This document shows positions 16,189 to 54,922 of a DNA stretch of 64,000 nt, piece after piece (position 1 is the stretch's first letter; each line of letters opens with the position of its first letter). The translations under genes and the position numbers were made by a program. The stretch is from the NCBI GenBank assembly GCA_963457665.1, contig OY735212.1:57588038-57652037 (forward strand). The letters are read 5' to 3'. The notes beneath the pieces are model-generated. The model worked only from the letters and a program-made list of their open reading frames with translations. It had not been told where the DNA came from and searched no databases. Origin of the DNA: Thysanoteuthis rhombus. Its lineage: Eukaryota > Mollusca > Cephalopoda > Oegopsida > Thysanoteuthidae.

Positions 16189-16278
16189 CTCCTCAATAAT
16201 AAATCCAAGCTCTTTTAGCCGAGTATCATCCCAATCAATGGAGTGGAATAAGTTATTCACTCTTTCAATGACAGCAAT
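16189..16278 (-). CDS. ADAM17: ADAM17-like protease, catalytic-domain exon (helix 1)
   Basis: This internal exon of exactly 30 codons in phase 0 lies between an acceptor ending atctcttgcag and the donor GAG|GTGAGT. It reads IAVIERVNNLFHSIDWDD and then TRLKELGFIIEE. Joined after the previous exon it makes NYM-IAVIERVNNLF, matching human ADAM17 NYLIELIDRVDDIY, followed by a conserved Trp-Asp and a Gly-x-x-Ile-Glu pattern. In ADAM17 this is the first helix and second strand of the catalytic domain. The zinc motif HExxHxxGxxH would lie in later exons and was not found in 1-16188, so the gene continues below this window. An intron of about 33.5 kb separates this exon from the previous one. A LINE fragment ends about 25 bases beyond its donor site. 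Confidence 0.87.
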
Positions 16279-18084
16279 CTGCAAGAGATGAATAAATTTT
16301 TTTTTTCTTTATTGAACATTAGAAAAAAATTTAGTCTGGCTCAAGACAAGATCTATGGAACAATTGGTGAAAAGATCTAGATGACTTTCACGTCAGCCTG
16401 TAAAATTTTTTTTCGAAGTTATTCAACCAGCGGTCGAGTTTAAGGGCAAGTTTACCCACCCAAAAATAATTTGTTTCAACCAATCAAAAAATATCAAGAT
16501 GTTAGAGAAATTATCTAAAATATCCTTCATATCATTAAGCCTTCATTCACTGCATGCTATAAAAAATAACATTAAAATATCTAATCAAGTAATAATGATA
16601 TTAGATTCATTATATGTATGATGAATTTTCAATTGAGATACAGTTTTGCTATCTGGAATATTATTTTAGAAATATTCGAGTCTTCGAAAAATATCCAAAC
16701 TTATCCAATATTTAATTATTTCTATAAACGATTCTTTATATCAAAACATGATATAAAACTCTGTTGTACTGACTGCTTAAGGTATACAGGGGTTTTAGAC
16801 AGTAGGTATTTGCAAATACAAGTGGGAAAACGGGAAAATCAATGATTTAACCACAATGAATAAACAGTCAAAATAAGAAAATTCCCTGATGAAAAGACAG
16901 ACTTTCCAGGAATATTCTTACGTAATTATTCTAATATATGTTTTATTCCTATATATCTATTTTTTCACTGTAAAACAGAGAAATAAATGAGACTACTTTG
17001 AAGGGCACTGAAGTTCAGCTTGCCCAGGGCACCAGGAATCCTAGAGCCAGCCCTAAAGGTAGATGCAAGTAGACAGATATTGGCACCATAAACAAACTTG
17101 TAACTACTCCCAGCACCAAGTTCCTATTACAGAAAGCTATTACAATATATGATATACGCCAGACACTTTAAGAGGCTAAGAAATGAGAATAGATGACAAA
17201 GGTCATAAATTCAAAAAATGGATAAAAATTATTGAAAATGAAAGCCATGAATTTTCAATGACCAAGAAGAAGTTGTCAAAGTTTATCCACAATTTTATGT
17301 TCTCAGGCTAAACAATAATAATAATATTCCATCACTTCCAGTGACTCCTTGCATGAATGAACATTTATTTTAGTTTTGTTATACAGTCCAGCCGAACTTA
17401 TATCCAGTGGTCATATGTCTCCATGTGTGTACAGGTATGTTAAACATGATTTGATTCCACAACTTTATATGCTCCCTTCATGGAAGTCTAAAAACCTAAT
17501 TAAACTTTTTTTTGGCAACTTACTCCCGTGACAAAGTATTTTTTAATCATAAGAAAACAGCTTGTATCCTAGAGAAAAGATTCTAGCTACTGATAGAGGA
17601 TGTATTATTAGATGCATTAAAAATGTTGATTATCAGTAAATCTTTGAGCGCAGTAATGTCAGCAACAACCAGTATCTACATTGATAAGGTTGACATTAAC
17701 ATTCAATACGTATTCAGGCAGAAAAGAATTCCTTCAAGATAGATTATCTTCATATGCTGAAAAACAAAGGAAATCTCCAGACAACATATAAGATAATCTT
17801 TGCAAATAAAGTAGATCCTTGCAAGACATTGAGAAAATCTAAATCCTATGTAAGCTTTTCAGGTGGAGGATTTGAGTCATTCAAAATGGCTGCTCCTAAA
17901 GATATTTACTGCTCATCAGTTTTATCTGTAGTGTTAGACATCTCTGGTTTCATGACACCTTCTGTTTTGACTAAATCTTATGCTCAAGACTAAAGGGTTG
18001 AAATGACTTGTACAGCAAGGTCACTAACCTCAGTTGAAAAGAGTAGATCCACTACAACTATCTATGACAATGAATCTCCATGAA
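16279..18084. other. No recognisable feature
   Basis: Intron sequence. A 79-codon plus-strand frame at 17754-17993 has no recognised motif. Confidence 0.45.
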
Positions 18085-18620
18085 ATCTCCATGAAATCCT
18101 CAAAAGAAGAAATCAAACCAAGAATCAGTCAAGGTTGACAAATTTTTGGTAAACCAAGCCTAACCTTCAAAGACAAAAAAATCCCATTAATCCTAAAAAA
18201 AGAAGGGTATACAAACAATGCATTCTCAAGATAGTCACCTATGGAGCTGAAACATGGAGCCTAACCAAGAAACCAACACTCGAACTGAAAACTATGCTCA
18301 ACATCGCCTGGAAGGATCAAAATACAGTGCAAGGGGAAAAACCAGGAATCAGAGATATTATAGATTCCAATAGGAAACTCAAATGGCGATGAGCTGTTCA
18401 TATAGTAAGAATGACAGACAACTGATGGTAATCATAACTCACAATGTGGATCACAAGAGATCATATGTGAAACTGTGGCAGGCAGGAAATGAGGTGGCAT
18501 GACAAACTAGACAAATTCAGGAAGTACTGGCTCCATGACTTCAAACATAGAATGATCTGGCAAATCTTGGGGAAGGTCTATGACCAACGATGAATGCTAA
18601 GAGGCCGATAAGGATGATTG
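18085..18620 (+). mobile_element. RTE lineage 1 LINE, 3' end
   Basis: From EEIKPRISQG through VTYGAETWSLTK to the end, finishing in ccgataaggatgattg. Decayed, with a deletion in the middle. Confidence 0.85.
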
Positions 18621-19757
18621 CTTTGGCCAAATCTTATTTCTGAAATTGAAGAGTCAAGATAACTTGTGTTGCTAGATCACTTACATCCATTGCCAATGAT
18701 TTTTTTTAGATCTCAGTGAATAACAGCATTTAGACATCAAAGAAAACCCTTCTATGACATTTCATTTTGCCATTGTTTAAGTTATTATGGATATTTCTAA
18801 ATTCTTATTGTGGGGTTCTTAACCTGTAATCTAACTCAGTGTCCAATTTTTTGTATAGTTTTATGACTTAGTTATATTCTGGCAGTTTCATATTTATGGA
18901 TAAATTTCACAAACCTATAATTTTGAAACACACTTACACTTTAATTCCTTAATTTTTTTCATGAGAACAAAGAAAAACTAGAGAAAGAAGGGAAGAAAAG
19001 AAATTGAAGTGTAATGTGTTTCAAAATTATGGTTTTGTGCAATTCATTCATAAATATGAAACTACCAAAATACAAATTAGCATACAACATACAGGATCTC
19101 ATTAAATCATTGGGTGAAGATATCAGTGACTGAAAACAAGATTTATTACCGTTAACTTTGGCTTTCGGAATTTTGCAAGGAATTTTTCCAAGTTCTTCTT
19201 CTGCAGCAGCTAAGATATCTTTCAGGATTATTTCAGTGTCAGTATCTTCCTCAAAAAAGTTGATCTCATGCTCAGTCTTGAGGTTAGAATCTGAACACTT
19301 TTTTTCTTTTCACAGTACTTTGGAATCCAGTAAAATTACTTAGTAGATTGCCATTCTTTTGCTTTTGTAGGGTGTGCTTATTTGTTTTTATTAGTGATGG
19401 TGACATACAAGTGGAGACTATTTGAGACACCAACAGAGGGGGTGAAACCAAGATGTATACCAACAAATTTTTTGTGTAGTTTATTGGTAATTTTTTTTTT
19501 CTAATGGAACATCTGTGCAGTGTCTACACAATATCTCTGAAAGTATTCAACAAATTACAATGAAATTTTGTGGGAAAGTAGAAAATGGGGTACAGAAGAG
19601 TTGGTTAAATTTGCTGGGGTAGATTCAGATATTTTTCTGTTTTCTTTTCATACTTATGGGTTTACCTGTATGAATGTCCAAGCAATATCTCCAAAAGACT
19701 TATAGGTTTATGCCACCGCATTTGATAATATGGGAGAATCATGATGAATAATTAATA
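18621..19757. other. No recognisable feature
   Basis: AT-rich intron sequence. Confidence 0.5.
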
Positions 19758-20106
19758 TTCATCATCATCTGTCTTTTAACATCCGTCGTTGGACAGAGAC
19801 CTTTCCCAGGATCTGCCACATTTCTGCAGAGCCAGTATTGTCTAAATTTGTGTAGTTCATCTCTCCATCTTGTATTTTGTTTTGCATGTGGTCTATGGGG
19901 ATCCATGTTGTGAGTTGTGTTGTCCATCAGTTGTCTTTTATTCTCACAACATGACCAGCCCATTGCCATTTGAGTTTTCTAATGGATTCTTTGATGTCTC
20001 GAATCCCTGTTTTCTTTCTGATATATTGTGCTGTCTTGTGATCTCTCCATGTAAGGTTGAGCATGATTCTGTCATGCGCGCGCTGCACGCTTCTCATTTT
20101 GCAGGT
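19758..20106 (-). mobile_element. RTE lineage 1 LINE, 3' end
   Basis: The minus strand reads KMRSVQRAHDRIMLNLTWRD and on through KKTGIRDIKESIRKLKWQ, WAGHVVRIKDN. A short atcatcatc tail is at the low coordinate. Fairly young. Confidence 0.9.
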
Positions 20107-20507
20107 TTGTAGTACAACCCCCCCCCCCACAAACCCCAAAAATTCAAGACATACTTGGAAGAGAACAAGTTCAGGAAGGAGGGAGGGTTGACATCAACCA
20201 TAGGCCTGCCATTGAGGGGTTTTGTCACTAATTTTATTTCAGAATCAATTTTGCAGAAGAAATTAATAAGTATTGCCAAAACTGCCAGGGAGTTTTCCCA
20301 AGGTCAGGTAGAGAGCTGATGAGTTGTTTCTTGACATGAACAGTTGCCAATATTTATTCACCATTCTGTCTGTGTTTGACCAAAATGCTGTCTTTTTCTG
20401 GTTGGGGGCCACAGTAGGAAGGTGACCCTGTAAGAAATTTTGCCATAAATCATGACAAGCATTCCAAGGAAAAATATGTATCGTCACCACCCTATATATC
20501 TAACGTT
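20107..20507. other. No recognisable feature
   Basis: Contains a C tract at 20118-20128; nothing else identified. Confidence 0.5.
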
Positions 20508-20886
20508 AGGGGTGATCAATTGAAAAGTTGGAAAAAGGGTTAATCAAAAAATAAGTTACTCTTTTTTGGGCTATCTGGATTTAAGAAAAAAAAAAAAAAG
20601 ACAGGAAGGTACAAACTAGTGACCAATTTAGCATGAGCTTGTATTGTATCTTGAACCTTCACTAAAAATATTTTGGGGTAATTTTTTTTTTAAATCATTG
20701 AGGGGAGTGAGTGTGCAAAATCTTCAGTTTCTACTATCAACAGTAAGGACTGGGCAAACTCAGGATGGATATGTTGATAGATATATATGTATTTATATCT
20801 ATCTATATATAGAGAGAGAGAGCACATGATACGTAAACCCAGCAACATTGTTTAAACTAGTCTGATGTGGGTAGCAGTGGTTAATA
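20508..20886 (+). repeat. Rep-A' copy
   Basis: The 5' part matches Rep-A (gtgatcaattgaaaagttgg..., accaatttagcatgagctt). The 3' part matches instead the A' segment seen at 1-237. Ends ggttaatatta. Confidence 0.75.
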
Positions 20887-21768
20887 TTAGAAACCATCAA
20901 CCAAAATAGTCATCAAAACAAGTGGGTCTATCTGGCTATTTGTGTATGTATCATGCGCACAAGCTGCACAAATGGAGCTAGGGGGATGAAAATTTAAACT
21001 TTACTATTCATTATATCTGCAAGGTTATGAACATTCTCAGTAAAAAGGACGATGTTGTCAGCAAATCTGAGGTTGCGTAGGTAATCGACGTCAATTTTTA
21101 TTCTTTTTTTTTCCCAGTCCAAGTGTGGAAAAGAAGAGTATACAATCAATGCATCCTCTCAATAGTTACCTATGGAGCTGAAACGTGGATCCTAACCAAA
21201 TGACTGACCTTCGAACCGAAAACCATGCAATATACATAGGAAGAAATCTTGCTCAACATAGAGAGACCACAAGGCAGCACCAAGTATTGGAGGAGAAACA
21301 AGAGTCTGAAATATCATAGATTTCATAAGAAAAATTAACATGGATCCCCAGGGATCACATGCGGAACCCAGGGCTGGTAAAATATGGGACTGCATGATGA
21401 ACTAGATAAGTTCAGAAAGTACTTGCTCCACAATAGAGAGGTCTAGCAAATCTTAAGGAAGGTTTATGTCCAACAACGGACGCTCAAAGGCAGCTGATGA
21501 TGATGATGATGTCTAAAAGCAATTTTCTTTGGTTTCTTGAAAATCCCTCCCTCCCAAAAGATTTTCATTGGGGGTTCAGTGAGCAATGTTTATGCTAAAT
21601 TTGTGCCCATTTGTTTTCTTTTTTATTTACACTTTTTTGTGTTTACTGCCCAGCAAAAGATAAGAAATAACTTATACATTATATACCCTACCTTCAAATG
21701 TTTTAATTAATCACCCCTACATGGTGTGCTGCCAAAAGATGTTGGTCTTGACAGAGTTTCTATATTAA
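20882..21768 (-). repeat. Rep-A copy split by a LINE
   Basis: The 3' part is 20882-21003 (ttagaaaccatcaaccaaaa) and the 5' part 21512-21768 (ending ccaaaagatgttggtcttga and tttctata). It meets the A' copy tail-to-tail, and an RTE sits inside it. Confidence 0.82.
21004..21511. mobile_element. RTE lineage 1 LINE, 5'-inverted (twin-primed)
   Basis: 21004-21115 reads on the minus strand NLDWEKKRIKIDVDYLRNL and then RFADNIVLFTENVHN (RT core). About 21130-21511 reads on the plus strand from the VYNQCIL region to a tgatgatgatgatgatg tail. The roughly 100 residues between the two are missing, as expected of a twin-primed insertion with a deletion at the junction. Confidence 0.82.
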
Positions 21769-22261
21769 ATGCATCTCAATTCGAAATATTTCCAAGAAGC
21801 AATCCTTCATCAGGACTCCTGCTCAGTCCAATATGACTTTTTTTTCATCTTCACTCATACTTAGGGATGCACACACAAGTACTTCAAGGAACAACATTTA
21901 TTTCTAATTTTCACCAAGATATTTGGGATATAGCTGAAAAGTTTTGGATATCTAAACATCCTTGGCAGCATAAATATATAATTGTGGTTTCATCAGAAGT
22001 AGGCAGCAGGTATAATGACTTGGACCCTTACCTTATAAAAATTGAGTTCTACCAGTCACTTCTCAAATCTACTCAAACTGTTATCTACCTATTATCAAAC
22101 ATGTTTACGATTCTTTCGACAACTTTTTGTTTACAGCCCCAGAGATATTTGGCCACTCCTTTTGTTGAATTCTATTTATAACTGTCAGGACCCAAACCAT
22201 CACAACATTTTGTTTGGACACGAGTCAGGGACATAACTATTTTTAAACAGCTCTTCTCCAT
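21769..22261. other. No recognisable feature
   Basis: A 104-codon plus-strand frame (21867-22181) lacks any motif and is judged chance. Confidence 0.4.
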
Positions 22262-22442
22262 TATCATTGAGTGTTGATCACTTAAAGCCTGAATTATCAA
22301 AAAACAAGTCTGAATGCTGCCACACATAAATGAAGAGATCAATTTAGTATAAACTCACATTGCAAATTGAACCCCCTCCCACGCTGGAAACTGATTCTAA
22401 GGGAGAATTTTCAACAGAAAAAAATCTTTTTTTTTAATAGAA
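22262..22442 (+). repeat. Rep-A, middle part
   Basis: Contains gatcaatttagtataaac and ttgaaccccctcccac, and stops at the RTE cluster. Confidence 0.72.
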
Positions 22443-23310
22443 ATCATCATCAGCTTTTTAGTGTCATATCATCATCATCATCATCATCATCAGTCTTTTA
22501 GCGTCCGTCGTTGGACATAGACCTTCCCCAGCATTTGCCACACTTCCCTATCATGGGCATGACGGAGCCAGTACTTCCTGAACTTGTCTAGCTCGTCCCT
22601 CCATCTAACGTTTTGCCGGCCTCGGTTGCGCATGTGGTCTCGGGGAATCCATGTTGTGAGTCGTGATGTCCATCGATTGTCAGCCATTCTTGCAACATAG
22701 CCAGCCCGTCGCCATTTGAGATCTTTTATGGATTCTATGATGTCTCTAACCCATGTCTTTTCCCGGATGTACCGTGCTGCTTTGTGGTCTCTCCATGTGA
22801 GGCCCAGCATTATTCTTTCATGTGCACGTTGCATGGTTCTCAGCTTACGAGTCTGTCTCTTGGTTAAGTTCCATGTTAGTGTCATATATCTTCCCCAAAA
22901 TTTGCTACACCTCTCTATCATGGGTATCGCAAAGATGAACTTTTTGTCGGCTAGGGTTTTCCCTGCGATCTCTTGGGATCAATATTGTTAGTTGAGATGT
23001 TCAGCAGTTGTCTGCCATTCTAATAACATGACCAGCCCCATTGGATTCTCTGACATCTCTTCTTTGCTTTTCATCTAATATATCAGGCTATCTTGTGTTC
23101 ACTCCAAGTTATTTTCGCATAATTCTCTCCTGAGGATGTTCAGCTCCATAGGTGACTATCAGGGGGATGCATTGGTTGTAGAAACTTTTTTTAGCAGTAG
23201 CAGGATTTTCTTACACTTGAAAGTTGACCTTACCCTACCAAAAGCTTGTCAACCTTGGAAAATGACTGCACTCTTGATACTTCAGGTTCCTTCAAGAGCA
23301 TTTTTTTTTA
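22443..23310 (-). mobile_element. RTE lineage 1 LINE, host of a nested LINE
   Basis: Its 3' tail and last bases are at 22443-22469 and the rest at 22876-23310, on the minus strand. The two parts are separated by the younger copy at 22470-22875. Decayed. Confidence 0.82.
22470..22875 (-). mobile_element. RTE lineage 1 LINE, young nested copy with target duplication
   Basis: 406 bp, 5' truncated, with an (ATC)n tail at the low end. The minus strand stays open through HGT-like start NLTKRQTRKLRTMQRAHERI, MLGLTWRDHKAARYIREKTW and on to YVQRRTLKD. The 12-bp sequence TTAGTGTCATAT flanks it at 22458-22469 and 22876-22887, a target-site duplication inside the older RTE. Confidence 0.92.
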
Positions 23311-23324
23311 AATGTTTTTTTTTT

Positions 23325-23737
23325 TAAATCATAATTAGTCTTTTATAGTCCATTGTTGGACAAAGACTAACCCCAAGATTTGCCACACCTCCCTATTGCA
23401 GGTGTCACGGAGCCAATATTTTATGTTCCTTTCGCCATTTTTTTTATTCTGCCTGCCTCAGTTCTGTATTTGATCTCTGGGGATCCATGTTGTGATTCAT
23501 GATGTTCATCAGTTGTCTGCCATACTTGCAACATGACCAGCCCATTACGATTTAAGTTTCTTAATGGATTATATGATTTTGCAGACTCCTGTTTTTACCC
23601 TAATGTACAGTACCGCTTGTCTGTCTCTTCATGTGAAGTTGAGCATAATTTTCTCATGATCAAGTTCAGGAACCTAGACAGGGGAAACAAAGGAATCAGA
23701 ATAGATGGCAAATACCTAAGTGACCCTAAGAGAAATT
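23325..23737. mobile_element. RTE lineage 1 LINE, 5'-inverted (twin-primed)
   Basis: 23325-23660 is a minus-strand 3' end (agtcttttatagtccattgt onward). 23664-23737 reads on the plus strand FRNLDRGNKGIRIDGKYLSD, the segment just before the FADD motif of RT. For a minus-strand insertion this is the twin-priming layout. Confidence 0.8.
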
Positions 23738-25149
23738 AAGCAATAAATCATCAACACAAGTAATTTAAAGATAAATTGCTGTAATATGAATATCAAAAGG
23801 TAGTAGAAAAAAGATCTATCATGAAAATATTTTAACTCTGTGAGTAAAAAGAAATGAGAGCTAATCCTGAATACATGAATTTATAAAATATGCCAGAGAC
23901 TATAGTAAAATGTATTTATTGCAATCAACTTCTGTTAAAAAAATGTATCTATCACTATTATCCCAGCTCCATAAAGATGTTGACGGAGGCAAAAAATTAT
24001 TGCCTTTCACTTTGAGAAGAGTCATTAGTTTTCCCTAATTTGTTTGTACATTTGAACTGCTAGCGATGCTGAAAACCAGGAACTATAGGTGTTCAATTGT
24101 CCAAAGTAGCAAATCATGTGTTCACTCATCAAACAAAGGAACTTTTAGTGGGAATTAGTTTTAGCTAATCACAGTCTCCCTTGTGGCAAGTTTTGACTTC
24201 CTTAGCCAATCAGTGTACTGCACAGAAGTAGCTCTTTCTTCTCATTGGTTAATTCTTCAAACAAAGACACCTTGAGCAGAAGCGGCAACTGCAGAACATT
24301 TGAATTTTAGTAGACAGTTGAGGAAAGGAGACTGGGGCTGTGACATATTAACCTGGGGCTCCTTGTTGGTCAGGAAGTAGGGATGGGGGTTGAAGATGGA
24401 CAAGATAGCAGCTGAGGTAGTGTGGTAATAGTAAGAAAATCTATGAAGTTAGGGTCCATTTTGTCCAGCATTTCTATACTAGTGGATGCAACTGGCTGGG
24501 TAGTGGTCTAACAATGTATACATACATGTATTCTTTCAACATTTTTCTATTTATACCCAGTTTGAACTTCTCAATTTCCCCTGGTCAAATCTTAGTCCAG
24601 ATTATGTTTTCACATGCTGGTTCCATTCAGAGTTTTTTTTTTTGTGATCACAACAGATCGGTGAAATTCACAACTGCAATCTCTTTTGTAGTGCACACCA
24701 CAATAGAAACACTTGCAAATGCATGTTTCACATGGTTATACAACAGCTACCAACATTTAGAAGGCACAGAATAGATCTCGTCCAATTTGGAACACTACTG
24801 AGAATTAGCAAAGAATCAACATTTTTCAAACTTACTTTGTCTATTTTCTTCTATTATTGAAATTGACTTTTAAAAAATGACCAACTGACTGATCTATTTT
24901 ACTATCTCATAACCCCTACTATTTGATGGGAAAACAGATATGAGAATGTTAAACAGCTTACTCTACAGTAAATTTTGAGATCTATTGTCTTTTTTATGTT
25001 TTCATTCAAGGTAACCACGATAATCATTCCAATGATTTTCATGTATGTATTTGAAATGGGCTTTTTTTAACAGCAATTATTTGCATCATTAAACTAGCTT
25101 CAGTTTAGTTGGGGTGGAATTAAACTAAAAAGAAAATTGGTAGTTAAAT
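23738..25149. other. No recognisable feature
   Basis: A less AT-rich patch at 24000-24470 has some internal similarity (caaacaaagga / caaacaaagac). No gene found. Confidence 0.45.
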
Positions 25150-25618
25150 TTGATAAGAGTGATATCAGAATAAATTTTATTTTCAAAAATATTGATATTC
25201 TTGGATGTGATCATCTTTTCACTCAGACTGTTCCTTGCTTTTGCTATCTTTGCAGAGAAGAATGTTTCTTTAACACCAGTGGAGGTCTGAATTTGTAATT
25301 TGTGACTGTGTCCTCAGGTTTTACAGCAGATAGGTGAAGTCAGGGCATTTCAGGCAATGAACGTCATTATCTATTATATGTATATTGTTTCAGATTCTAT
25401 GGACTTCATTTGGTCAGCACGTTTTCTTCTTTTTCCCAGAGTACCTGAAAAAAGTGTACGATATATTTCCTAGCCTTGATTTTGGCAGCCCTCCTCTGTA
25501 CTCTCTCTATGGCATCTGAATTGTATTCCATGTGAGGGGGCCATATGCAAGAAGAGAATTCTTGATGGGGACACACCAGAGATTTCTCCTCATCAACATA
25601 CTTAAATGATTGTTTCAT
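25150..25618 (-). mobile_element. CR1/Jockey-like LINE fragment
   Basis: The minus strand reads SSCIWPPHMEYNSDAIERVQ and RRAAK, the pattern 'VWSPH...D...ERVQRRA.K' near the C-terminus of CR1- and Jockey-type reverse transcriptases. The following region fits the usual RKHSSLQR-like end. It is a different LINE group from the RTE copies. Decayed and truncated at both ends. Confidence 0.75.
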
Positions 25619-27119
25619 TTGATGTGTACACTTCGTTTAATACCATCAAGTATCTTTCATGTATAGATTGCTTGAAATCAAATGATTTTAGACCTAGCTT
25701 TGAAAAAGTTGTTGAAACATGAATCAATACACTTTCAGAGTAAAAAGAATTGTTTTTGATCAAGTGTCATAATCATGCAATGCAATTATCTAATAACAAA
25801 TGATTTACATTCATCGCCATCATTCACAAAGCTAGAATATAAAACTTTAATCTTCTGGATTAAAAAACCTGTCATGTTTTTAACTTCAGTACACAACAGT
25901 TGGAAAATAATATTATTGAGTTTCATCATCAAAATCAACACCAAAGGCACAAAGCAAAATTTACTAAAAGCAAACATCTAAAAAATATTCATTTGGGGGA
26001 GGTCGGAGTATGAAGATGCTTTGATAAAAAAAAAATTGTTCTTTTTTAAAAAAAATTTAGCTTTTAAAAACATTAGGAAAACATTCCATATTTTCATCTT
26101 AAAATCAATCATTAATTACATCTTCCAGTTCAAATTCTTTTTATAGAAGAGCTGCAGGCAACACTGGCATTTTTCCTCTTTTTTTTTAATCATTGCTGGT
26201 AAAATAAAAATAATGTTTTAAACAATACACTAGCAAATATCTTAAACTATTATTCCATTCATTGATTTCTTGTGCTTTTAATAGAAGAAATCAAGAGAAA
26301 AGAAAATGACTGATAATTAAAGTCAAATCAAGATTTGGAGAATTACAGAATCAAAATTGAACAGTAAGATCTTTTTGGTTCATAAAATGTCTCAAGTAAA
26401 GATCTTTGTAAGAGATTACTTTTTTCTTATATTGAGTCACTGTAGTCTCACATATGGCAGGCCCGACCAACCAGCCAAAGTGAGCTACAGCTTCTTCAGC
26501 TTGCAGGTGTGTTGCCAGGATTTGCTCAACAAAGGGATTGGCTTCCTCAATAGGGGGTGGGAGATCGATTATTCAGCACCAAGCTAAGGGTAAGGATCCT
26601 TGGGCATGCTCCCCAGGGTAATTTTATAAATTGGCATTTGAAATTGCAATTGAAAATTTTTTTTTACCACAATGTTAATTTTATAGACATAGGTACTACA
26701 AACACCTTGTTATCTATGGTGAAAAAAGACCGCTATTTGTAAGTCCATAGTGTTGACTGATATAATAGTGTCAGGGTTCGTGATGTGGTTTTAAAGATGG
26801 TGAGGCACAAAATAAGTTCTTGCCAGAGGTACCCACATGATTGGCACCACAGAGAAAACTTCAAGAAAGGAATCCTCTTGATTGCTGGAAAATGCATTTA
26901 CAGATGATTATTTAGTGACATTTTGACATTCATTATTATCAGAAATGTTATGAATTGCATCCCGTTTTATGCTACCCTTTGACTTTGGACTGCAATTCTT
27001 TTCAACATAGTTATCTCTTTCACAAAACAAAAATAAAATTACAATATAAACTTTGGTCAGCAGATTTTAAAGTCCAATTTATTGAATTTACCAAATATGA
27101 AAAACCTGTCTATGTGAAG
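25619..27119. other. Mostly unassigned; small Rep-B piece
   Basis: 26430-26505 is a minus-strand Rep-B fragment (ccaaccagccaaagtgagct). Nothing else identified. Confidence 0.5.
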
Positions 27120-43904: not shown

Positions 43905-45170
43905 AGACCTTTAAGCCTACTCAACTGCATCTACAAACTTTTCACAAAAATCACTCCCAATCAAATCACAAAAACACTTGATGAAAACCAACCACAGGAA
44001 TAAGCTGGCTTCAGAAAAAGCTACTCTATTATGGACTACCTGCATTCAATAAATCGGCTGGTAGAAAAAACAGCAGAATACAAGCTGCCGTTCACTGTAG
44101 CATTTATCAACTTCAAAAAGGCCTTTGACCCAGTGGAAATCCCTGTGGTCATGAGGGCCATTACTTTACAAGGTATAGACCCCATATATGTCAGAGTGCT
44201 GCAACATATGTACAATCACAGCAGCCTCTTTATCAGGCCACATAAAGACTCTAAACCCTTCTGGCTCCAAAAAGGAGTAAGACAAGGTGATACCAGCTCA
44301 CCCAAACCCTTCACAGCCTGCCTCAAGATGATCTTCCAAAACCTTGACTGGGGAACAAAGGAACAAAAATAGACAGCAAATATCTGAACAACCTTGGATT
44401 TGCAGATGACATTGCCCTTTTTGCAGAGAACCTACACAACCTTCAACTAATGCTGGATTAACTAAATGAAGAAAGCAAGAAAGTTAGCGTAAACATTAAT
44501 TTTTAGAATTTCATGTGCAACAACCACATTGGGAATAAGAACATAATGATCAAAATGGAAGATGCCAAACTGGAGAAAGTAGACCATTACATCTACCTAG
44601 GACAACAAATCTTCAAGACACCCAGGAAAGACAGAGAAATCAAACAAACAATCATTCTAGGATGGCAAGCCTTCAGCAGAGCAAGCTCAACCTTCAAAAA
44701 CAAGAAGATACCAATAATCCTAAAAAGAAGGGTATACAACCAATGTATCATCCCGATAGTCACTCATGGAGCTGAAACATGGAAACTAAGAGACAGACTC
44801 ACAAACTGAGAAGCATACAACATGCACACAAAAGAATCATGCTCAACTTCACATTGAGAGATCACAAGACGGCACAATATATCAGGGAGAAGACAGGAGT
44901 GAAGGACATCAAAGAATCCATTAAAAAACTCAAATGGCAATGGGCTGGTCATGTTCCAAGTATGACACACATCCACTGGACATCACGACTCACGACATGG
45001 ATCCCCAGAGACAACATGCACAAACGAGGCCAACAGAGTATTAGATGGAGAGATGAGCTAGACAAAGTCAGAAAGTACTGGCTTCGCAATACCCACAATA
45101 GAGAAATTTCGCAAATCCTGGAGAAAGGTCCATGTCCAATGACAACCAGTAAAAGACGGATGATGATGAA
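43905..45170 (+). mobile_element. RTE lineage 1 LINE, 3' 1.3 kb
   Basis: Starts inside RT at RPLSLLNCIYKLFTKI (the first residues decayed). It continues through FINFKKAFDPVE (near 44105), GVRQGDTSSPKPFTA (44274), the C-terminus HYIYLGQQI, IVTHGAETWKL and KLKWQWAGHV, to a gatgatgatgaa tail. A few frameshifts; better preserved than the 31890 copy in RT. Confidence 0.92.
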
Positions 45171-47374
45171 GTCATACAATAATTCACTATTTAAAAGGGA
45201 ATATTCCCTTGATTGGTTTTATCCCTAGGTTTGTATCTCTATTTCATTTGGAGAGTTTGGTTTTAAAACACGGTAAGTGCCATTTGAAAAAAAATGTATT
45301 TGATAAAACTAAAATCAAATTCTGGATTTTAATCTTATTGCAACCTTTTTATAGGTATGCAGTCTGTAATATAATAAAAAAAATGAAAATCCAGAATTTC
45401 ATGAAACACATTTTTTTTCTAAATGGCCGTGATCACATTTTAGAACCACACTCTTCATTTTCACATTTCTGGGGTTTTCTCTGTCCAAATTTTTCTCTTC
45501 ACAAAACTAATACAAATCAAATAATCAAATACATTTGATCTCAGAAACTTGCATTATATTTCAAACAGATTTAAAGACAAGTTGCTATCAATCAAACAGT
45601 TCAAACGTGATAATACATGGACATAGACGTATATTGATTCTTATTTATAAAGTGTACAAAAGAGTCAGTCAAGATATAATGAGTGTGCAAAAGTGCTTTC
45701 TGTTTGAAGACTGGCAAAACGTTTGATATAGATGGTATGATTCAAAGTATAGAAAGATGATCTATAAAAGACCAACCCTGGCATTGTAAACAACTTTGCT
45801 GCAATAACCTCCATACCAACTGCGCGAGATAAACAATTCCAATAATTAAAGCCAAGAGGGATATGTTTGGACCTGTTCCATGAAAACGTTTGCAGAACCT
45901 GCCTTTGGGGTCAGACTATGCCAAGAAAATCAAAATCCGTGAACAGTGAAAAACAAGGACTGAGTAACAGAGGCACTGAACTGTAATGAAAGTATTCTAG
46001 GAGAACCAGAAATGAGAAGATAAGTTTATGATCAATGAAAACACTTTTCTCCACTTTTTGTTTATATAACAGACAAACAGATTACACGTTTGTATAACAT
46101 TTTTGTCCGTCAGAGTCTCTTGCACTAGTACATAGATGAAGACATTTCCATGAAATTCCACAAACATACTTACTGGGATGTCTACTTTGTAAGATTTATT
46201 TATTTTTGGTGGATAGCCAATCTTTCCAGATTTTAAAAATAACTCGTTATCACAGTCAATAATTGAATAACTGTAGTGTAAAAATTTAAAGTCTTATAAA
46301 AAAAATTCCATTGAAAAATATGTATGATCAGGATAAATTCTATTGATGACATCACTTGAAAATTTCTTGAATAAGACAAATATCCAGATTCTGGAGAATA
46401 TTCACTCATCAAAAGAAGACCCCCAAAAAGTCAGAAAAGCTTCTTTTCCAAAATTTAGAAAGGGTCTAGTGGAGTGCTGTCGCCAATTTTCAAGTTTGTA
46501 GACAAAATGGTACGGCCAAAAGTGCTGGAACATAATCACAGGCACATTTTAAAAAAGGATTGTACGCTTAACCATCTTTGGTGACTGCACTTTTTCAACA
46601 AAATGCTAAACCATAATATCTTCAAATAATATCAGCATTCTTCTTCCCTATACTCAACCAGCTGTATTTGAGTCATAAGTCAAAACTAAACAAAGGAGAT
46701 TTCTCCTCAAATTTACTCATTTTAAAATATAATCAAATGAGGCAAAAGGGAGACAAGTTTGTTGATCATTCAAATTTTCATTGTAAAAATTTTTTAAAAT
46801 GTATCAAGTTTTAATTGCACAGATACTACAATTTTATTTCATTTCTAGTTATTATAAGAGGTCTTCAAAAAGGACTTTGTTTAATGCAAATCATAGATTC
46901 AGATCAAATTCACCTGAATTAAATTCTTGTCATCTCTTTTCTGTTTGCATGTTTAATTTGCAGCTATGTTAAGAGCTCATTGGAGAGAAAAATAACCAAG
47001 AAAAAAAGATTTTCTCAAAAGCTATTTTAATACTTGCAATACTGGGCAACTTTCATATTTTACGATTGAGTTGTTGACAAGTTTCAAAATGAAAATATCT
47101 CCCATGGACAATAAAATGATAATGTTTGTGAAATCTTCTGTGAAATGAGCCAGGCCATTTAATAATTTTGAATTCCATCGTTTTATTGATTTAGAATGAC
47201 ATTTTCTGCAAATTTTTATTCAAAGGTTTATGTTACATGATAATAAAAAATCAGGAGTGTAAATTTTTTATCACAAGCCTTCCATTTCATCATCAGATTC
47301 TTTTTTCTTTTTTTTTTTTGTTATAAAAGGGAAGTTTCTGGGAAGCTTGCACAAAATACACAAAATATTCAAAA
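45171..47374. other. No recognisable feature
   Basis: A 2.2-kb AT-rich stretch. 46430-46505 resembles the middle of Rep-B (gggtctagtggagtgctg, caattttcaagtttgta) but is too decayed to bound. Confidence 0.5.
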
Positions 47375-47730
47375 TATCCATACCTTGTATAAAAGAATCA
47401 CCATAGCAAACTCATTTACCAGAACTAAATTATCTGAAATAGATCTTTTATCTAAAATTATCTTTAAAAAAAAAAAATACTAGCACCAGATTGGAACATT
47501 GTTGGTTGGTTCATAAGGAGCATAGAGACCTGAAAAAAAACACTTTTTTGTCTTTTGAAAAAATTATATGGTGCCCAGTTGTGTACGCATGTAAATTTTC
47601 AAGGTTATAAACCCAAAAATATGACCAAGGGCACCTACAAATAGACAGGCAAAGAGAGAAGAATCTATGACCCACTTGGCTGGTCAGTTGGGCGGGTCAT
47701 TTGTGAGACTGTGGTGATCCAATAATAAAT
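47375..47730 (+). repeat. Rep-B MITE, full-length copy
   Basis: The left end is aaaagaatcaccatagc and the right end gactgtggtgatccaat. About 340 bp; a good reference copy. Confidence 0.88.
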
Positions 47731-48049
47731 AAGTTTAGTATTCAATTATGACATTAGATTGGGAAAATATTAGCTCAATCAATTTATTCAAAATAAATTA
47801 TAAAAATATCAACTCATTTTTATCATGCTTCATACTGTGAATATATATTTTTTTGAATTTAAAAAAATAAAATATAAATGATATTTTTTGTGGCCAGAAA
47901 AGCATAAATTGGAAAATATATCATCAATTGAACAATATTTGTTAAATGGAAACCAATGGAAAGATATTTGTTAATCTTCTCATTTAGACTTTATAAATAC
48001 ATCAGGCAACTCACAAGTAGATGAAGGTATGCAAAAAGAATTTTTTTTC

Positions 48050-48410
48050 CAGCTAAGTATACATTTTTATTTTCTGAAAGTTAAAAATGCAACTCAAATG
48101 CAATAGAAGATTTGTGCAGTTTATAGATGACTGCTATGAGTGATTGAATTTGTCTTTTGTGAAGTTTCATGACACTCCATGTTTAAGTAGTCCTCCTGAG
48201 GCTGACAGCAAACAAATGAAGACATTACTTGAGAATAATCAATGTTATACCATATGATGGACAGTCAACCTATACAGAAATTTTAAACCCGAAAAAAAAA
48301 TCTTGTACCAACTTGGTTGTATTAGATGCTCTTATGAGTAGCTTCCAAATGAGTTAAATGAGGAAAAATTACTGGACTATATTTGATGTTCCATTTTTGT
48401 AATAAGTTGT
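48050..48410 (+). mobile_element. mariner element fragment, decayed
   Basis: Similar to the copy at 42270-42600 over ttacttgagaataatcaatg, the ccaacttggttgtattag segment and gtagcttccaaatgag. It reads LYQLGCIRCSYE then LPNELNEEKLLD, the mariner pattern LHQLGYV...VPHELxEKNLLD. Terminal repeat not seen. Confidence 0.75.
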
Positions 48411-48784
48411 AACAAGCAATGAAAAGTGGATACTTAACGATGTAGAATAGCAGAGATCAAGAGACAAGAAAAACTAACCATTACTAACCGTACCAAAAGC
48501 CGGTCTTCTTCCAAAGAAGTTGATGCTAAGTACATGATGGAATTGGAAGGGAATCTTTTATCAGAACCTAGAGGTTTATGATAAACCAACTGATTGATTG
48601 AAACAAATACTGCTTCTAAAGGCTGCAATTGATAAAGAACATCTACAATTAGTTGAGAGAGGGTATAATATTCCATCAAGATAATTTTAGACTACACGCT
48701 TCTTTGGTGACCAGACAGGAATCGTTCTAGCTTTGCTTGGAAGTTTCCACATGTTTGCAATATTCACCAGATTTTTATTTATCA

Positions 48785-49125
48785 TATTATCAAATCACTG
48801 TGGGCCCATAAATGACCAGCAAATGGCCCGTCTGACCAACTAACCAGCCAAGTGGGCTACAGATTCTTCTCTCTTTGCTCATCTATTTGTCTGTTTGTTT
48901 TTAGCATTCCTATTCATATTTTTGAGGCTACAAGCTGAAAAACTTGCATAAGTACACTACTGAGTACCATCTAAGAACTTTTTTTGCTAATTTTTCAAAA
49001 AAGTGCTTTTTGAGGTTTCTACAGTTATTTTGGACCAACAATGCCCAATGTGCGAATATCTCTTTTGGGGGTGGGGATAATTAGTTTTTGTACATGCACA
49101 GGCAGATGTGATTCATTTATGCCAG
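48785..49125 (-). repeat. Rep-B MITE, full-length copy
   Basis: Reverse orientation, from aaatcactgtgggcccataa to gcagatgtgattcattta. Confidence 0.87.
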
Positions 49126-49774
49126 CAACGGATATTTACAGGATTCTTTAATTTTATTCCCTGGAAGTCTACAAAATGCCCCTAGTGCAGTTCTTTGCAG
49201 AAAGGAATAAAATGTCCCCGCAGGATTATTATGAAGTTGCCTGACAGAAGGGGATAGTGGAACAAGACAGTAAATATGTCATTTAATAAAGTTAATGATT
49301 TTTTTTTCCACTCAAACTGGACACTCAATATCAATTCTCACCAACTGTGATCATTGCAAGATTATTCTTAAGAGAATGTCATGCAATCTGGTCATATCTT
49401 TTTTGAGGAACATTTTCACATCAAGACATCTTCACTAACATCGCAGCAATGATTTAAAGTGGTTTAGTGAATCTCATTTGATTTTAAAGTAATTAACCTC
49501 ACGAGATTAACAACTCCTGGATGATAAAACCAGAGAATTTGGGGCTTCTGGGACTAATCTCTAACTAATTAAATCTTTGATAATTTCTCCTCTCGTTAGT
49601 AAACTGAGATTAAAAATTTGTGCATCTGTAAATTCTCCAGTGTAGCTCAGCCATTTCTATAGAGGGTAATTTTATTTTACTGTTTCTCTTAATATTCATA
49701 ATCTGGGATCTAGTAATCAACTATATGAAGCAAGAAAATATAACTGAAGATGTTGTGGAAAAGCCTAAACTCAC
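49126..49774. other. No recognisable feature
   Basis: Intron sequence just downstream (in gene orientation) of the donor at 49774. Confidence 0.5.
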
Positions 49775-49905
49775 CATATAATTAGCCGTCTTCAGAGGCT
49801 GGCCATTGCCAAAAATTTGGTGGAATCGGAAGTCTGCTACAAGAAGCAAAGAGCATGCTGACTTGGCTGCTGACACCTCTCTGCGGTTTCGATCATGGGA
49901 ATTGG
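49775..49905 (-). CDS. ADAM17: ADAM17-like protease, exon with furin site and start of catalytic domain
   Basis: This internal exon of 131 bp has an acceptor ending ggaattatttcag and a strong donor, ATG|GTGAGT. It reads two bases plus 43 codons without a stop. It starts NSHDRNRREVSAAK, where RNRR fits the furin rule R-x-K/R-R that separates prodomain from catalytic domain in ADAM17. It then reads ACSLLLVADFRFHQIFGNG and ends in TANYM. Human ADAM17 has TCKLLVVADHRF and TTNYL in the same places, the first beta strand and first helix of the metalloprotease domain. The protein would be a type I membrane sheddase maturing in the Golgi. ADAM10 is a poorer match, having QLYIQTD instead of LLVVAD. 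Codon use and splice signals look intact, so this is probably a working host gene and not a retrocopy. Confidence 0.88.
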
Positions 49906-50219
49906 CTGAAATAATTCCAAGAGCAAGATTAAGACTGTAGTAACTAATATTTCTTCAAGCATAAATTTATAGGGCAGACAGGCAGTGATTTGGCCACAAC
50001 TGCTGACTCACCAACTGGTGGGAGTTGTGATTCAAGCATCTAAATGCCCAATGAAGGTTGTGTACCACTGTCTGCTTCCAAAAGAAAACAAACAAACCCA
50101 CAAACAGTGACCTAATGAGGTAACCTGAGAATACACCTAACAGGTGTATTACAAAAGTATTATCACAATTCTAAGACCATCAATAATAAGGTATGTTTCA
50201 TCTGGGAAAACTTAAAAAT

Positions 50220-50478
50220 AGGTCCATTTAGTCACTCAATGGAAACTTTTCTCACTAAAAGTCTATTTGGTGAGTGGGAGGGTTAAAAAAAAACAACTTT
50301 TTTATACACATCATCATCATTAGTCTATAAACATCCATCGTTAGAATAAATGTTAAAATTTTCAGCCCTTTAGATCCATTGGTGCAACCTGTATGCATGA
50401 TACATACATAGCCAACCAGTCAACCAGACCAACTTAAACACTGTGAAAAACTTATGTAAATGGTTGGCATTTCTAATA
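50220..50478 (+). repeat. Rep-A copy, shortened, with a tiny LINE insert
   Basis: From ggtccatttagtcactcaat to ggttggcatttctaata, with the middle deleted. A 34-bp RTE end is inserted at 50311. Confidence 0.8.
50311..50345 (-). mobile_element. RTE lineage 1 LINE, minimal 3' end
   Basis: Only the (ATC)n tail and the last bases of the element (tagtctataaacatccatcg) remain, the same sequence that ends every other lineage 1 copy. Confidence 0.7.
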
Positions 50479-50639
50479 TTGTCTCCAGGTAGGTTTTCGA
50501 TTTCATCAACTAAGAGCATTTGTTTATATCCAGGTCTACTATGAATAATTAATTCATACAAAACAACTGATAATGTCTGTCTGTCTGTCTCTCCCATTAA
50601 ACATGGTCTAAATATTCACGTTGCTCAACCAAATGCTTA

Positions 50640-50765
50640 AGTAGTGAACCTATGAAAATGGTTTTAACTTTTTAGTTTAAAAAAAAAAGATTCTTTATGG
50701 ATTTTGGATGGAGGTTCTATTTAAAGTGTGACCGTAATGCTAAACTGAGCCCTCATTTTCCGTCC
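50640..50765 (-). repeat. Rep-A fragment
   Basis: Middle part only (ggaggttctatttaaag, taatgctaaactgagccct). Confidence 0.5.
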
Positions 50766-51144
50766 AATATACATGTATACATTCTATTATAAAAAAAATC
50801 AACTGGCTCTGTTTGTGTTTCTGCCACCCGCTTAAACCATTGGTTGAATATTGACACAGCTCAATCAAATTTGGAAGTTTCTGTTCTATATACATAAATA
50901 CACATGCATTCTAGCTGAGACCACCTGATAAGGCCATGTTCAGATAGTCTTGTATGAATAGTTGAATTATCTTAAGTTTTAAACTGGTAAAGAATGAGGG
51001 TACTAGTTGAAATGAATCTTCAAGTTGAACCAACATTTTTCTATTGAAATACAGGCATACCTTGAACAGCGTGGATAATTTGTTCAAAAATCTTTAGAAC
51101 TGCACCATTCAAGATCTCATCCTTTAACAGGCTTCTTATCTGAT

Positions 51145-51590
51145 TATCATTATGAGTCTTTTAACTGCTGTTGTTGGACATAGATCTTCCTCAGGATTTG
51201 CCACACCTCTCTATCACAGAGCCAATACCTCCTGAACTTGTTGACTTCATCCATCCATCTTATATTTTGCTGACCTCAGTTGCACATGTGATCTATAAGG
51301 ATCCATGTTGTGAGTTGTGATATCCCTTGGTTGTCTGCCATTCTTGCAACATGACCAGCCCATTGCCATTTGTGTTTTCTGTTTTTCCCTGACATAGTGT
51401 GCTATCTTGTGATTTCTCCACGTGAGGTTGAGCATGATCTTTTCATGTACACGTTGCATGGTTTTCAGTTTGCAGGTGTGTCTCTCGGTTAGGTTCCATG
51501 TTTCAGCTCCATAGGTGACTATCAGGAGGATGCTTTGGTTGTAGACCCTTCTTTTTAGGATTAAGGAGATCTTATTTTTACAGGTTTAGC
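51145..51590 (-). mobile_element. RTE lineage 1 LINE, 3' end
   Basis: The minus strand carries IVTYGAETWNLTE..., RVHEKIMLNLTWRNHKIAH and the C-terminus. The tail is decayed to attatcattatgagtc. A small deletion has removed the IESxxxL part. Confidence 0.88.
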
Positions 51591-52206
51591 TTACTGCTAT
51601 CTACTTAAACTTAGTTACATTGATTTTTACTGCATTACCTTAAACATACTATATCAAGACCCACATTAATCAAAGCTGTAATATTCTACATATTCCTGAA
51701 TTCAGTCCTACCAACTCAAATAAATTTTTCAGGCTAAATCAACTTTAAAAAGCATTGAAATACACTTTCAGCCATATTATGGCTAGAAAGTAGCTAAAAC
51801 TATGCTGAAAAATAGCACTAAATATGTAATGTTCATGCTGCCCAAACAAAAAATGCACAAAATTGGTAACACTACCAGTACTGCAACAGACCTAAAGATC
51901 CCTGCATAAATGGTCAAGAAATGGTGCCAGGTAGCAAAATAGTTATCTGCATAGGTAAACAGATTTTGTGTTCAAGTTGTGCTGGGTCTTTGATTAGTAC
52001 ACACTGTTATTCTAGGGAAAAGCATGAGTTTACCTTCCTCTGTCTCATCAATACATTCTTGTCACTGGTATGACACGATGGTTGATAGAAAAGAAAATGG
52101 GTAAGTGAGAACTTGGGTAAACCCTTTACTCATTACAATCTTACCTACTAAGGCACTGACAGCAGAAATAGCTATAACAACCACATTAAACCCTGAGCCA
52201 TTTAGC

Positions 52207-52404
52207 AGTACACTTTTGTCTACATCACTTGGACAAATATCAGTTTAGTCTACAGACACTAATCTAAAAGTAATTACCAAGGGTATACCAAATGTCTTTC
52301 ATTGTGGGTGCAGGCTCCTGGTAAGTGCTTTTAGACTAAGATCATTTACCTGAAGTGATTTAGACAAAACTTATATTCCCTAAAGTGATGTAGACAAAAG
52401 TACT
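52207..52404. mobile_element. Fold-back MITE F2
   Basis: The arms of about 85 bp are inverted copies: cttttgtctacatcactt at 52212 pairs with aagtgatgtagacaaaag at 52384, and aaaagtaattaccaag with ctggtaagtgctttt nearer the centre. No coding capacity. Confidence 0.78.
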
Positions 52405-53650
52405 GTAAGCAACCATGGAATAGTCACAATATGATTGCCATATGTTTAAAACAAAGAGAGAACATTCAATTCAAATTCTGAACATCTGTGATCATAGCAA
52501 GATTATTTTCAAGCGTAAAAAAATCAGATAATAACTGATCAAAAGAAAGTCGGAAGGAATTACTGAGTAAAACAAAAAAAAAATGAGAACATTAGTCAGT
52601 ATCAACAAAGGATGAAAAATTGCTGTAAGGATAGACGTTTTTGTTCAAGATTACTCCTTGAATTCTCTCTTATAAAAGTTATTGGTTTGTTGACTCAAAG
52701 TGAACATTAATCTCTGAGTTCAAAGAATTTTAATCAACAAACCTTTCATCTTCAAACAACTGAGTTGGATTCGCTAGAGGTAAGTGAGGATAATGTATTT
52801 TTCCCTTTGAATCAACTTTGTTCTTTGCTTAGGTGTTTAATTTAAAGTAAGTATCAGATAAGGAAGGAGATAGTACTTACTTCCTGAATTGTTATACTCA
52901 ACTACATATGTACTTACATTCTGCTTTCTCATTTGATAATTTTTCTCCGTACATCAAATGTACTGGATTGTACGTAAGACAGTGCTGCTGCACAAGGCCC
53001 CAAGATTTCTGAGGCCCCTAAAAATTATGTATCAAGAAAAAGTATTGAGATTTTTTTTTTAGATCAAAATATCTCGTCTTGTTTGAGGATCTATTATGCA
53101 ATATAGAGATAGATTATTGATATGTGAATACTATACATTAAATTACAAATCATAATTTTATTTCATTTTTGTTTTGATTTGTTTGAAAATAGCTAAATAC
53201 AAAATTAGAAGGGTTCCCATGAAATTGTATGCACTTGGCACTATTAATGTTAAATCCAGCCATACTAATGTTATTACTTTCTGTCTTTGATACTTGGAAT
53301 TTATGTAAAATACTCATAAATTGGCCAACTCTGGAATCTGATGAAAATTTCTCTTTCAATCAAAATTTCAATTTAACTACCATATAGGTGTATGTGTGGG
53401 GGGATGTGCATGAACTGCTCCAAAATTTGATCAGTTCTTCTGTGGCCCTATTATCGACCCCAAACAGAATCTATTGAGAACTTTAGGAGATATTGTGAAG
53501 ACAGTTGTGAGCATATACCTAAATGTACTTGGAAATAAAATTGAAAAAAAGATTTTTGGATCAGTTCGGAAAATTTTACCACTTTTTTCTGGGCCCATAA
53601 TTCACCATTTCAGAAAGTTTCATTGAAATCCATTGAGTACTCGAAGATAG

Positions 53651-53690
<40 letters not shown>
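53651..53690. repeat. (TA)n microsatellite
   Basis: About 36 bp of TA. Confidence 0.9.
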
Positions 53691-54845
53691 ACTTTTTTCA
53701 ACTTCATTGACAACCGTAAAAGATGTTGGGAAGAAATCGAGAGTTGAATGAGCTTTAAATTTAGATTCTTATGAAAAGTTCTTAGGGACAGATCCTGAAT
53801 TTTGAGCTCGGGAAGGATCCAATTTCATTTTTTCATTCTATCTGATTAGACAATGGATATGATATATTTTTTTATGTTTTTAAGGTTACTTTATGATTAT
53901 TTGTTTTTTTTTTCTTCTATAGGATGTCTTTATCTACATATTTATTTAAAAGAAATGTTGATTGGGCTAGCCCTTTGAGGGAGTAAAGTCTAGACCCCCT
54001 GGACCCACCCCTCTAGATCCACACCTGGCTTAGGAATGATTTATCAACTTTATTTGGGTAATGCTACAAAATGTCCTGATCTCTACCTCACAATTTCATT
54101 ATTATTTTTTTCTTATGTTTCATTGCTCTCCCCGAATTTACAGTTCTTTTTTAAATACAAATACACTTATAGAATAAAGATTGAAGATTTTGAAACATTT
54201 GAAAAGGTGGAACTATTGCATCATATATAAAAACAAAAACCATCTACTATCTTTCCATTGATATCTGTGATTTCTGATTTCAAAGAGTTTCTAAACAAAG
54301 CAATCGTAGCAATTAGTGAGTTTAAATAAAAGTTAAGTAAGTGTACAATTCTATCGATGATTTGTTCTGGCATCTCAGAGTACTTTTGTCTTTGATAAGT
54401 TTGCAATGAATGAGTATATATAACATTTCTAATCATAAAGTTAGCAGGATTTAATAAATTTTCGAAAACAGTTTCAGCTATTAATAACAAATGATACCTG
54501 GTATCAATGTAAAAACCAAATGCTTAATACATCAATAATTGATTCGAAACATGTTCTTTTGATGATGTCACACTTTTTTATAACATCCCATCTCTTCTGA
54601 TGTAATGGCCACTGGTAAATAAAACATAACATCCATTCCTTTCTATTTCTGTTATTTAACATAACTAGAACTGACAGACACACCAACCGACCAAAAATTA
54701 CCTATTGAGACATGAACACGTCTAAAAAAAATTATTCCCATAATTGTAAAAGTCGTAGTTCTTCTAAATCGTTCTTCTATGAATCATAGAGCAGATAATG
54801 CCAATGCTTGTAGCAAACAAAATATTGGTTAAAAAAATGTATTAC

Positions 54846-54922
54846 CTAAACTAATTTGAGGAAGATTCTTTTCCCTGGACATGATTTTCCTTTTCTCTTC
54901 ATTTCCACATTTGGTGAAGGCA
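54846..54922 (-). CDS. ADAM17: ADAM17-like protease, exon with candidate cysteine switch (end of prodomain)
   Basis: This is an internal exon of 77 bp on the minus strand. It follows a good acceptor (pyrimidine-rich run ending ttacatttcag) and ends in TTAG|GTAATA. Read as one base, 25 codons and one base, it gives AFTKCGNEEKRK... ending in LPQISL. The last G joins the CC that opens the exon at 49905 to make an Ala codon, so phases agree exactly. In ADAM proteases an unpaired Cys near the end of the prodomain holds the active-site zinc (cysteine switch). ADAM17 has VCG there and this exon has KCG at a similar distance (about 37 residues) from the conserved Cys that opens the catalytic domain. 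The rest of the exon diverges from vertebrate ADAM17. The call rests on phase, order and strand with the next two exons more than on similarity of this exon alone. The preceding exon was not found. Confidence 0.68.

What the first reader, a model, noticed from the sequence alone, without database searches (positions are those of the whole stretch)
16189..54922. An ADAM17-like gene hidden as three tiny exons across 39 kb of repeats
The exons at 54846, 49775 and 16189 on the minus strand join in phases 1 and 0 into 99 codons matching the prodomain/catalytic boundary of ADAM17. All have canonical splice sites. They cover 298 bases, so simple gene finders would miss them. The 33.5-kb intron inside the catalytic domain is striking.
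Basis: partly seen in the sequence, partly recalled or inferred. Interest (0 to 1): 0.78.

Follow-up and report, generated by a model that had tools for sequence, protein, structure and literature searches.

The report
Second ADAM17 gene with catalytic microexon
The three small exons are real pieces of a very long, divergent second copy of the ADAM17 shedding-protease gene in a mollusc (probably a cephalopod), and in both ADAM17 genes of this animal the catalytic amino acid seems to sit on an exon only six bases long, which annotation easily misses.

Summary
The three minus-strand exons, their phases, splice sites and the 33,496-bp intron are as described. The joined 99 residues match ADAM17 and no other ADAM in the PDB, and match two proteins of ~730 aa from assembled sequence across all 99 residues.

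They are exons 5-7 of 13 exons mapped between C15:57,456,552 and 57,678,360; a C-terminal piece at 57,318,155 makes the gene at least 360 kb long.

It is not the animal's ordinary ADAM17. A compact ~36-kb ortholog lies 9 Mb away; the two proteins are 40% identical. The window gene is a divergent paralog with introns nine times longer in sum. Its only close relatives found are the two assembled proteins; other ADAM17s are at 48% or less.

Unexpectedly, neither gene's exons spell the catalytic Glu of HExxH. In each, the intron splitting the motif holds one fitting 6-nt microexon (EF, EI), agreeing with the nearest assembled proteins. Five of 120 relatives, all from annotated sets, lack exactly these two residues. 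Including or skipping it would switch activity; regulated skipping is not shown.

The parts
54846..54922 (-). coding exon 5: end of prodomain with cysteine switch (TKCGN); preceded by a phase-2 intron, followed by a phase-1 intron
49775..49905 (-). coding exon 6: furin site RNRR and start of the catalytic domain (CSLLLVADFRF); followed by a phase-0 intron
16189..16278 (-). coding exon 7: catalytic domain (IAVIERVNNLFHSIDWDDTRLKELGFIIEE); followed by a phase-0 intron
54923..64000 (-). part of intron 4 (11,106 bp in all; exon 4 lies 2,029-2,138 bases beyond the window end, at C15:57654066-57654175)
49906..54845 (-). intron 5, 4,940 bp, phase 1
16279..49774 (-). intron 6, 33,496 bp, phase 0, holding LINE and other repeat copies
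1..16188 (-). part of intron 7 (29,049 bp in all; exon 8 lies outside the window at C15:57575084-57575176)

Best explanation
The three exons belong to a functional, divergent second ADAM17 gene of a mollusc, most likely a cephalopod. It encodes a membrane sheddase made as a zymogen: prodomain with cysteine switch, furin cleavage, metzincin catalytic domain, disintegrin domain and ADAM17-type membrane-proximal domain. The gene arose by duplication of ADAM17, before the lineage of Argonauta split from that of this animal, largely kept its intron positions, and had its introns inflated about nine-fold, in part by repeats. In this gene and in its compact ortholog, the two residues after the first zinc histidine (the catalytic Glu and the next residue) are supplied by a 6-nt microexon between two phase-1 introns. 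Including it gives HE[FI]GHNWGSEH; skipping it stays in frame but removes the catalytic Glu. Shown: exons, their order and boundaries, paralogy, shared introns. Strongly inferred: the microexon. Inferred only: the complete domain set of this copy, protease activity and substrates.
For: Exons and 99-residue peptide. Ortholog: modelled as 20 exons, the 6-nt one included, 82% to P0194. Tree of 31 rows: ortholog with Argonauta and P0194 (100/100), paralog with P0121/P0122 (100/100). A duplication after the Argonauta split is rejected, p-AU 0.003, the group being named after the tree was seen. 13 of 13 introns compared agree in phase, 10 of 13 in alignment column. Microexon: the spliced exons give TAH-GHNWG. 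One fit in the paralog intron (AG|AGTTCG|GTGAGT, EF) and one in the ortholog's 3,210-bp intron (AG|AAATTG|GTAAGT, EI). EF and EI are what P0121 and P0194 carry. Wider pattern with a strong donor: 1 occurrence in 249 kb on both strands, the candidate itself. Of 96 six-nt AG..GT sites in the paralog intron and 4 in the ortholog's, only the candidate reaches its combined splice score. Two other ADAM-like places of the genome carry HExGHN unbroken (L001, L014).
Against: No RNA of this organism was available. The microexon acceptors are weak: 4.2 and -11.7, against 5.0 to 16.3 for 27 ordinary introns, which were also the ones the scoring matrix was built from. One 5,000-base part of the paralog intron is masked and unseen. 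Residues 1-40, 516-597 and 639-729 of P0121, so the signal peptide and the transmembrane segment, were not placed in this genome. The cephalopod assignment rests on the tree alone. Without the donor criterion the wider hexamer pattern occurs 11 times in 249 kb on both strands, so one such site in a ~39-kb intron is unremarkable by itself; the weight comes from the donor, the matching residues and the second gene. P0122 has EL, not EF.
Confidence: 0.82

Rival explanations
1. The window gene is a decaying pseudogene of ADAM17.
For: Very long introns, an accelerated stem branch (1.74 changes per column), and no close annotated relative among the 120 listed of 476 hits.
Against: No stop or frameshift in 481 codons, splice sites intact at all 12 junctions, 76-81% identity to two full-length assembled proteins. 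That this means constraint is inference; no dN/dS could be computed.
Confidence: 0.05
2. A real gene, but without the microexon: both genes encode proteins lacking the catalytic Glu (pseudoproteases), and the 6-nt candidates are chance.
For: Spliced exons alone give TAHGHNWG; annotated proteins of Argonauta, Physella, Lymnaea, Bulinus and one Ixodes isoform look the same; weak acceptors.
Against: The nearest assembled proteins of both genes contain two residues there; 19 of 19 assembly-derived rows have HExGH; one candidate per intron, with strong donors and the expected residues.
Confidence: 0.1
3. On timing only: the duplication is confined to cephalopods, and the grouping of the paralog with gastropod ADAM17s is long-branch attraction.
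For: A cephalopod-only clade is not rejected (p-AU 0.152); long stem branch.
Against: The free tree puts the paralog with gastropods (89/96), with Patella and Lottia on different sides; but gastropods as one clade are only marginal against this (p-AU 0.07).
Confidence: 0.4

Closest known systems
ADAM17 / TACE / Drosophila Tace ('ADAM 17-like protease')
   Same: Cysteine switch, furin site, HExxHxxGxxH (with the microexon), Met-turn; disintegrin domain and ADAM17-type membrane-proximal domain in P0121
   Different: About 38% identical to Haliotis, chiton and Argonauta ADAM17 and 40% to the animal's own ortholog; gene at least 360 kb against ~36 kb; P0121 has a short cytoplasmic tail
Vertebrate ADAM17 exon structure
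   Same: An exon border near ..NNK, about where exon 11 ends here
   Different: In the four vertebrate models that miss the zinc site, the loss is one 51-residue block with the whole HELGHN motif inside, which suggests that no microexon splits the motif there
Regulated microexons of 3-30 nt (for example the 6-nt Dctn2 microexon; PMC7821500, abstract start and passages seen)
   Same: Size, in frame, overlooked by aligners
   Different: Known ones usually tune interaction surfaces (recalled); this one would carry a catalytic residue. No UGC close to the acceptor was seen, so no sign of the known neural regulator (motif recalled; sequences)

Membership tests
ADAM17 | Sequence closest to ADAM17 rather than ADAM10 or other ADAMs | tested here: met
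   18 of 19 PDB sequences at E up to 10 are ADAM17, none ADAM10; the listed hits of P0121 that bear an ADAM name say ADAM 17-like (120 of 476 listed). ADAM10 was not put in the tree.
ADAM17 | Cysteine switch in the prodomain | tested here: met
   C5 of the 99 residues is invariant in 13 of 13 aligned sequences
ADAM17 | Furin-type site before the catalytic domain | tested here: met
   RNRR in exon 6, aligned with RVKR of a mammal
ADAM17 | Zinc site HExxHxxGxxH | tested here: inconclusive
   H and GHNWGSEH come from exons 10 and 11; E and F only if the 6-nt microexon is used
ADAM17 | Met-turn | tested here: met
   KYLMYPYSVNGYEPNNK in exon 11
ADAM17 | Disintegrin and ADAM17 membrane-proximal domain | tested here: inconclusive
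   Exon 13 and the piece at C15:57318155 match P0121 at 83% and 76%; PF16698 and PF00200 are precomputed for P0121, not scored on this gene
ADAM17 | Transmembrane segment and signal peptide | not tested
   These exons were not placed; the genome search with P0121 did not complete
Microexon | Exon of 30 nt or less between functional splice sites, included in mRNA | tested here: inconclusive
   Sites found; inclusion supported only by relatives' assembled proteins

The most novel reading that the evidence does not exclude
ADAM17 of molluscs, and perhaps of protostomes in general, carries a built-in on/off splice switch: a 6-nt cassette microexon holding the catalytic Glu. Skipping it in some tissue or state would make an in-frame, catalytically dead, possibly dominant-negative sheddase, and cephalopods would have two such genes.
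Probability: 0.18. Interest if true: 0.78.

Novelty: new variant of a known kind. Interest (0 to 1): 0.52.

Why it matters
It adds a divergent ADAM17 paralog that one large protein search found only in assembled sequence, not in annotated sets. It may also explain why several annotated invertebrate ADAM17 proteins look catalytically dead: the catalytic residue would sit on a 6-base exon that pipelines drop. Anyone who classes such models as pseudoproteases could be misled. If the microexon is alternatively spliced, one splicing decision would turn shedding on or off; the E406A form of human ADAM17 is described as catalytically inactive and dominant-negative (PMC7042727, passages seen).

Tried and rejected
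Pseudogene, another ADAM family and chance exons were considered and rejected (see rivals). Pfam on single exons gave nothing (proteins 2-4). The 54-bp array in intron 4 was considered as a cassette exon of this gene: its open frame after the nearest upstream AG would need a phase-1 intron while intron 4 is phase 2, so it does not fit (worked out by hand). A UGC element near the microexon acceptors was looked for by eye and not seen. Missing 3' exons: repeated genome-search requests with P0121 did not complete. Papers: (microexon and ADAM17) listed 2 papers, neither about such an exon by title and start of abstract; some searches listed 12, 15, 15, 1, 12 and 12 papers of often many more, with no title or abstract start on an ADAM17 microexon or a cephalopod ADAM17 paralog. 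Only open-licence papers are searched.

Full report
1. Observation. The joined peptide finds ADAM17 in the PDB (E 3e-12; 18 of 19 listed sequences are ADAM17, the other a ribosomal protein; no ADAM10 listed). tblastn of a related full-length protein against the window finds these three places, collinear on the minus strand, at 80, 58 and 33 bits; the next hit, at 27 bits, is in the range of chance, since the best hit in 50 shuffled windows was 29.6 bits. Exon 5 alone is thus only modestly above chance by score, but its position, phase and splice sites fit.

2. Support from relatives. A search with the joined peptide, set in a longer query so that full-length proteins qualified, returned two proteins of 729 and 731 aa, 77% and 75% identical over all 99 residues, as the only hits at E up to 0.001 among 45 candidates. 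They come from assembled public sequence, with contigs of 2.5 and 2.8 kb, so probably transcripts; no name is given. The closest named relatives of P0121 are ADAM 17-like proteases of Haliotis (48%), Gigantopelta, a chiton and other molluscs, with arthropods close behind (120 of 476 hits listed).

3. The whole gene. The genome is held (2.73 Gb, 514 contigs; the window is C15:57588038-57652037). In fetched sequence around the window, 13 exons covering residues 41-515 of P0121 were mapped on the minus strand from 57,678,360 to 57,456,552. The protein is 81% identical to P0121 and has no stop. The outer ends of the first and last exon are the ends of the matches, not true borders. A further match to residues 598-638 lies at 57,318,155, so the gene spans at least 360 kb. 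Gaps between exons run from 2.4 to 44 kb; the microexon splits the 44-kb one into 5.0 and 39.2 kb.

4. A second ADAM17 in the same genome. A chiton ADAM17 query also found exons at C15:48.37-48.40 Mb. That gene was modelled as 20 exons, the 6-nt one included, in about 36 kb; it is 82% identical to P0194 and 54% to Argonauta (junction 15|16 is unresolved and the ends are again match ends). In a tree of 31 proteins it groups with Argonauta and P0194 (100/100), while the window gene groups with P0121 and P0122 (100/100) on a long stem, next to gastropod ADAM17s (89/96). AU tests, with groups named after the tree was seen, reject a duplication after the Argonauta split (p 0.003), do not reject one confined to cephalopods (p 0.152), and leave gastropods as one clade marginal (p 0.07). 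The two own proteins are 40% identical over 467 columns. 13 of 13 introns compared agree in phase and 10 of 13 in exact column; the other three are off by 25, 20 and 1 columns. These introns sum to 220,366 bp against 24,324 bp.

5. The catalytic microexon. The spliced paralog reads ITAH|GHNWGSEHDP at exons 10|11: the Glu of HExxH and the next residue are missing. The ortholog has the same gap. Between two phase-1 introns the missing piece should be six bases of the form A[AG]NTNG. The paralog's 44,254-bp intron (5,000 bases masked) has one fit, AG|AGTTCG|GTGAGT at C15:57536556, coding E-F. The ortholog's 3,210-bp intron has one, AG|AAATTG|GTAAGT at C15:48389774, coding E-I. The nearest assembled proteins read HEFGHN (P0121) and HEIGHN (P0194); P0122 reads HELGHN. 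In 249 kb around the paralog, both strands, the pattern occurs 11 times, once with a donor matching GTAAGT at 5 or more of 6 places: the candidate. Among 96 and 4 six-nt AG..GT sites in the two introns, each candidate alone reaches its combined score. Against this: the acceptors are weak, with the pyrimidine-rich stretch some 25-60 bases upstream, and both score below all 27 ordinary introns from which the matrix was built, the ortholog's far below.

6. Breadth. Of the 240 proteins held (the listed best of three searches), 11 lack HExGHN: five (Physella, Lymnaea, Bulinus, Argonauta, Ixodes isoform X4) lack exactly the two residues, two scallops read HELGHS, and four vertebrate models lack a 51-residue block. 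Among the 120 rows, 5 of 101 with an ncbi, uniref or nr source and 0 of 19 from assembly-only sources lack the two residues. This is in line with 'missed by annotation', but 19 rows are too few to exclude skipping. It also suggests, without proving, that the microexon exists in snails and a tick. In four vertebrates the lost block holds the whole zinc motif, which suggests one unsplit exon there. Two other ADAM-like places of this genome have the motif unbroken (L001, L014). Aligners are known to lose sensitivity for microexons under 10 nt (PMC7821500, passages seen).

7. Function. By homology the product is a furin-activated membrane sheddase. Skipping the microexon would leave the frame intact and remove the catalytic Glu; human E406A is described as catalytically inactive and dominant-negative (PMC7042727, passages seen). 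Whether skipping occurs in vivo is open.

8. Verdict. The larger result is a divergent, very long ADAM17 paralog, found in one large protein search only in assembled sequence, and a probable 6-nt catalytic microexon shared by both ADAM17 genes. No paper on either was seen in the listings.

Noticed in passing
window 56597-57013, minus strand (C15:57644634-57645050), in intron 4: Seven copies of a 54-bp unit, 97% alike, open in one minus frame as FAEKPMFDIKHFTGFGRR repeats with Gly-Arg-Arg and then a stop, like a multi-copy amidated neuropeptide precursor exon. Two plus-strand frames are open too, and of four changes between copies (the array's end left out) one is synonymous and three are not, so a minisatellite read in a lucky frame is as likely. 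A search of papers for HFTGF found none.
   Followed up: partly
C15:48381204-48383003 (ortholog junction 15|16), loci L012 and L042: No good GT-AG fit; the donor side holds ATATCCTTTT and the acceptor side TTTCTTAAC, which look like a U12-type intron (consensus recalled).
   Followed up: no
window 59395-59511, plus strand: 5S rRNA match just above the Rfam cut-off (41.1 against 38 bits), perhaps a 5S-derived repeat or pseudogene.
   Followed up: no
window 32908-33792, 44004-45228, 22490-22978 (minus), 59783-60175: Reverse-transcriptase pieces (RVT_1 in 33280-33789 and 44004-44369) and about a dozen partial copies of what looks like the same LINE's 3' part, at 66-92% identity to each other.
   Followed up: partly
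window 6811-7263, 13389-13850, 15200-15620, 30984-31413, 36888-37318, 42614-43028: A dispersed family of ~430-bp repeats at 66-74% identity, in both orientations, with no ORF of 120 aa or more.
   Followed up: no
window 40066-40812: 27-bp minisatellite, 27 copies.
   Followed up: no
P0169 (Mizuhopecten), P0191 (Argopecten): Scallop ADAM17 reads HELGHSWGSEYD in Mizuhopecten (third zinc His replaced by Tyr) and HELGHSWGSEHD in Argopecten.
   Followed up: no
P0020, P0026, P0031, P0103: Four vertebrate ADAM17 models lack one 51-residue block with the whole zinc site, as if one exon were skipped.
   Followed up: partly
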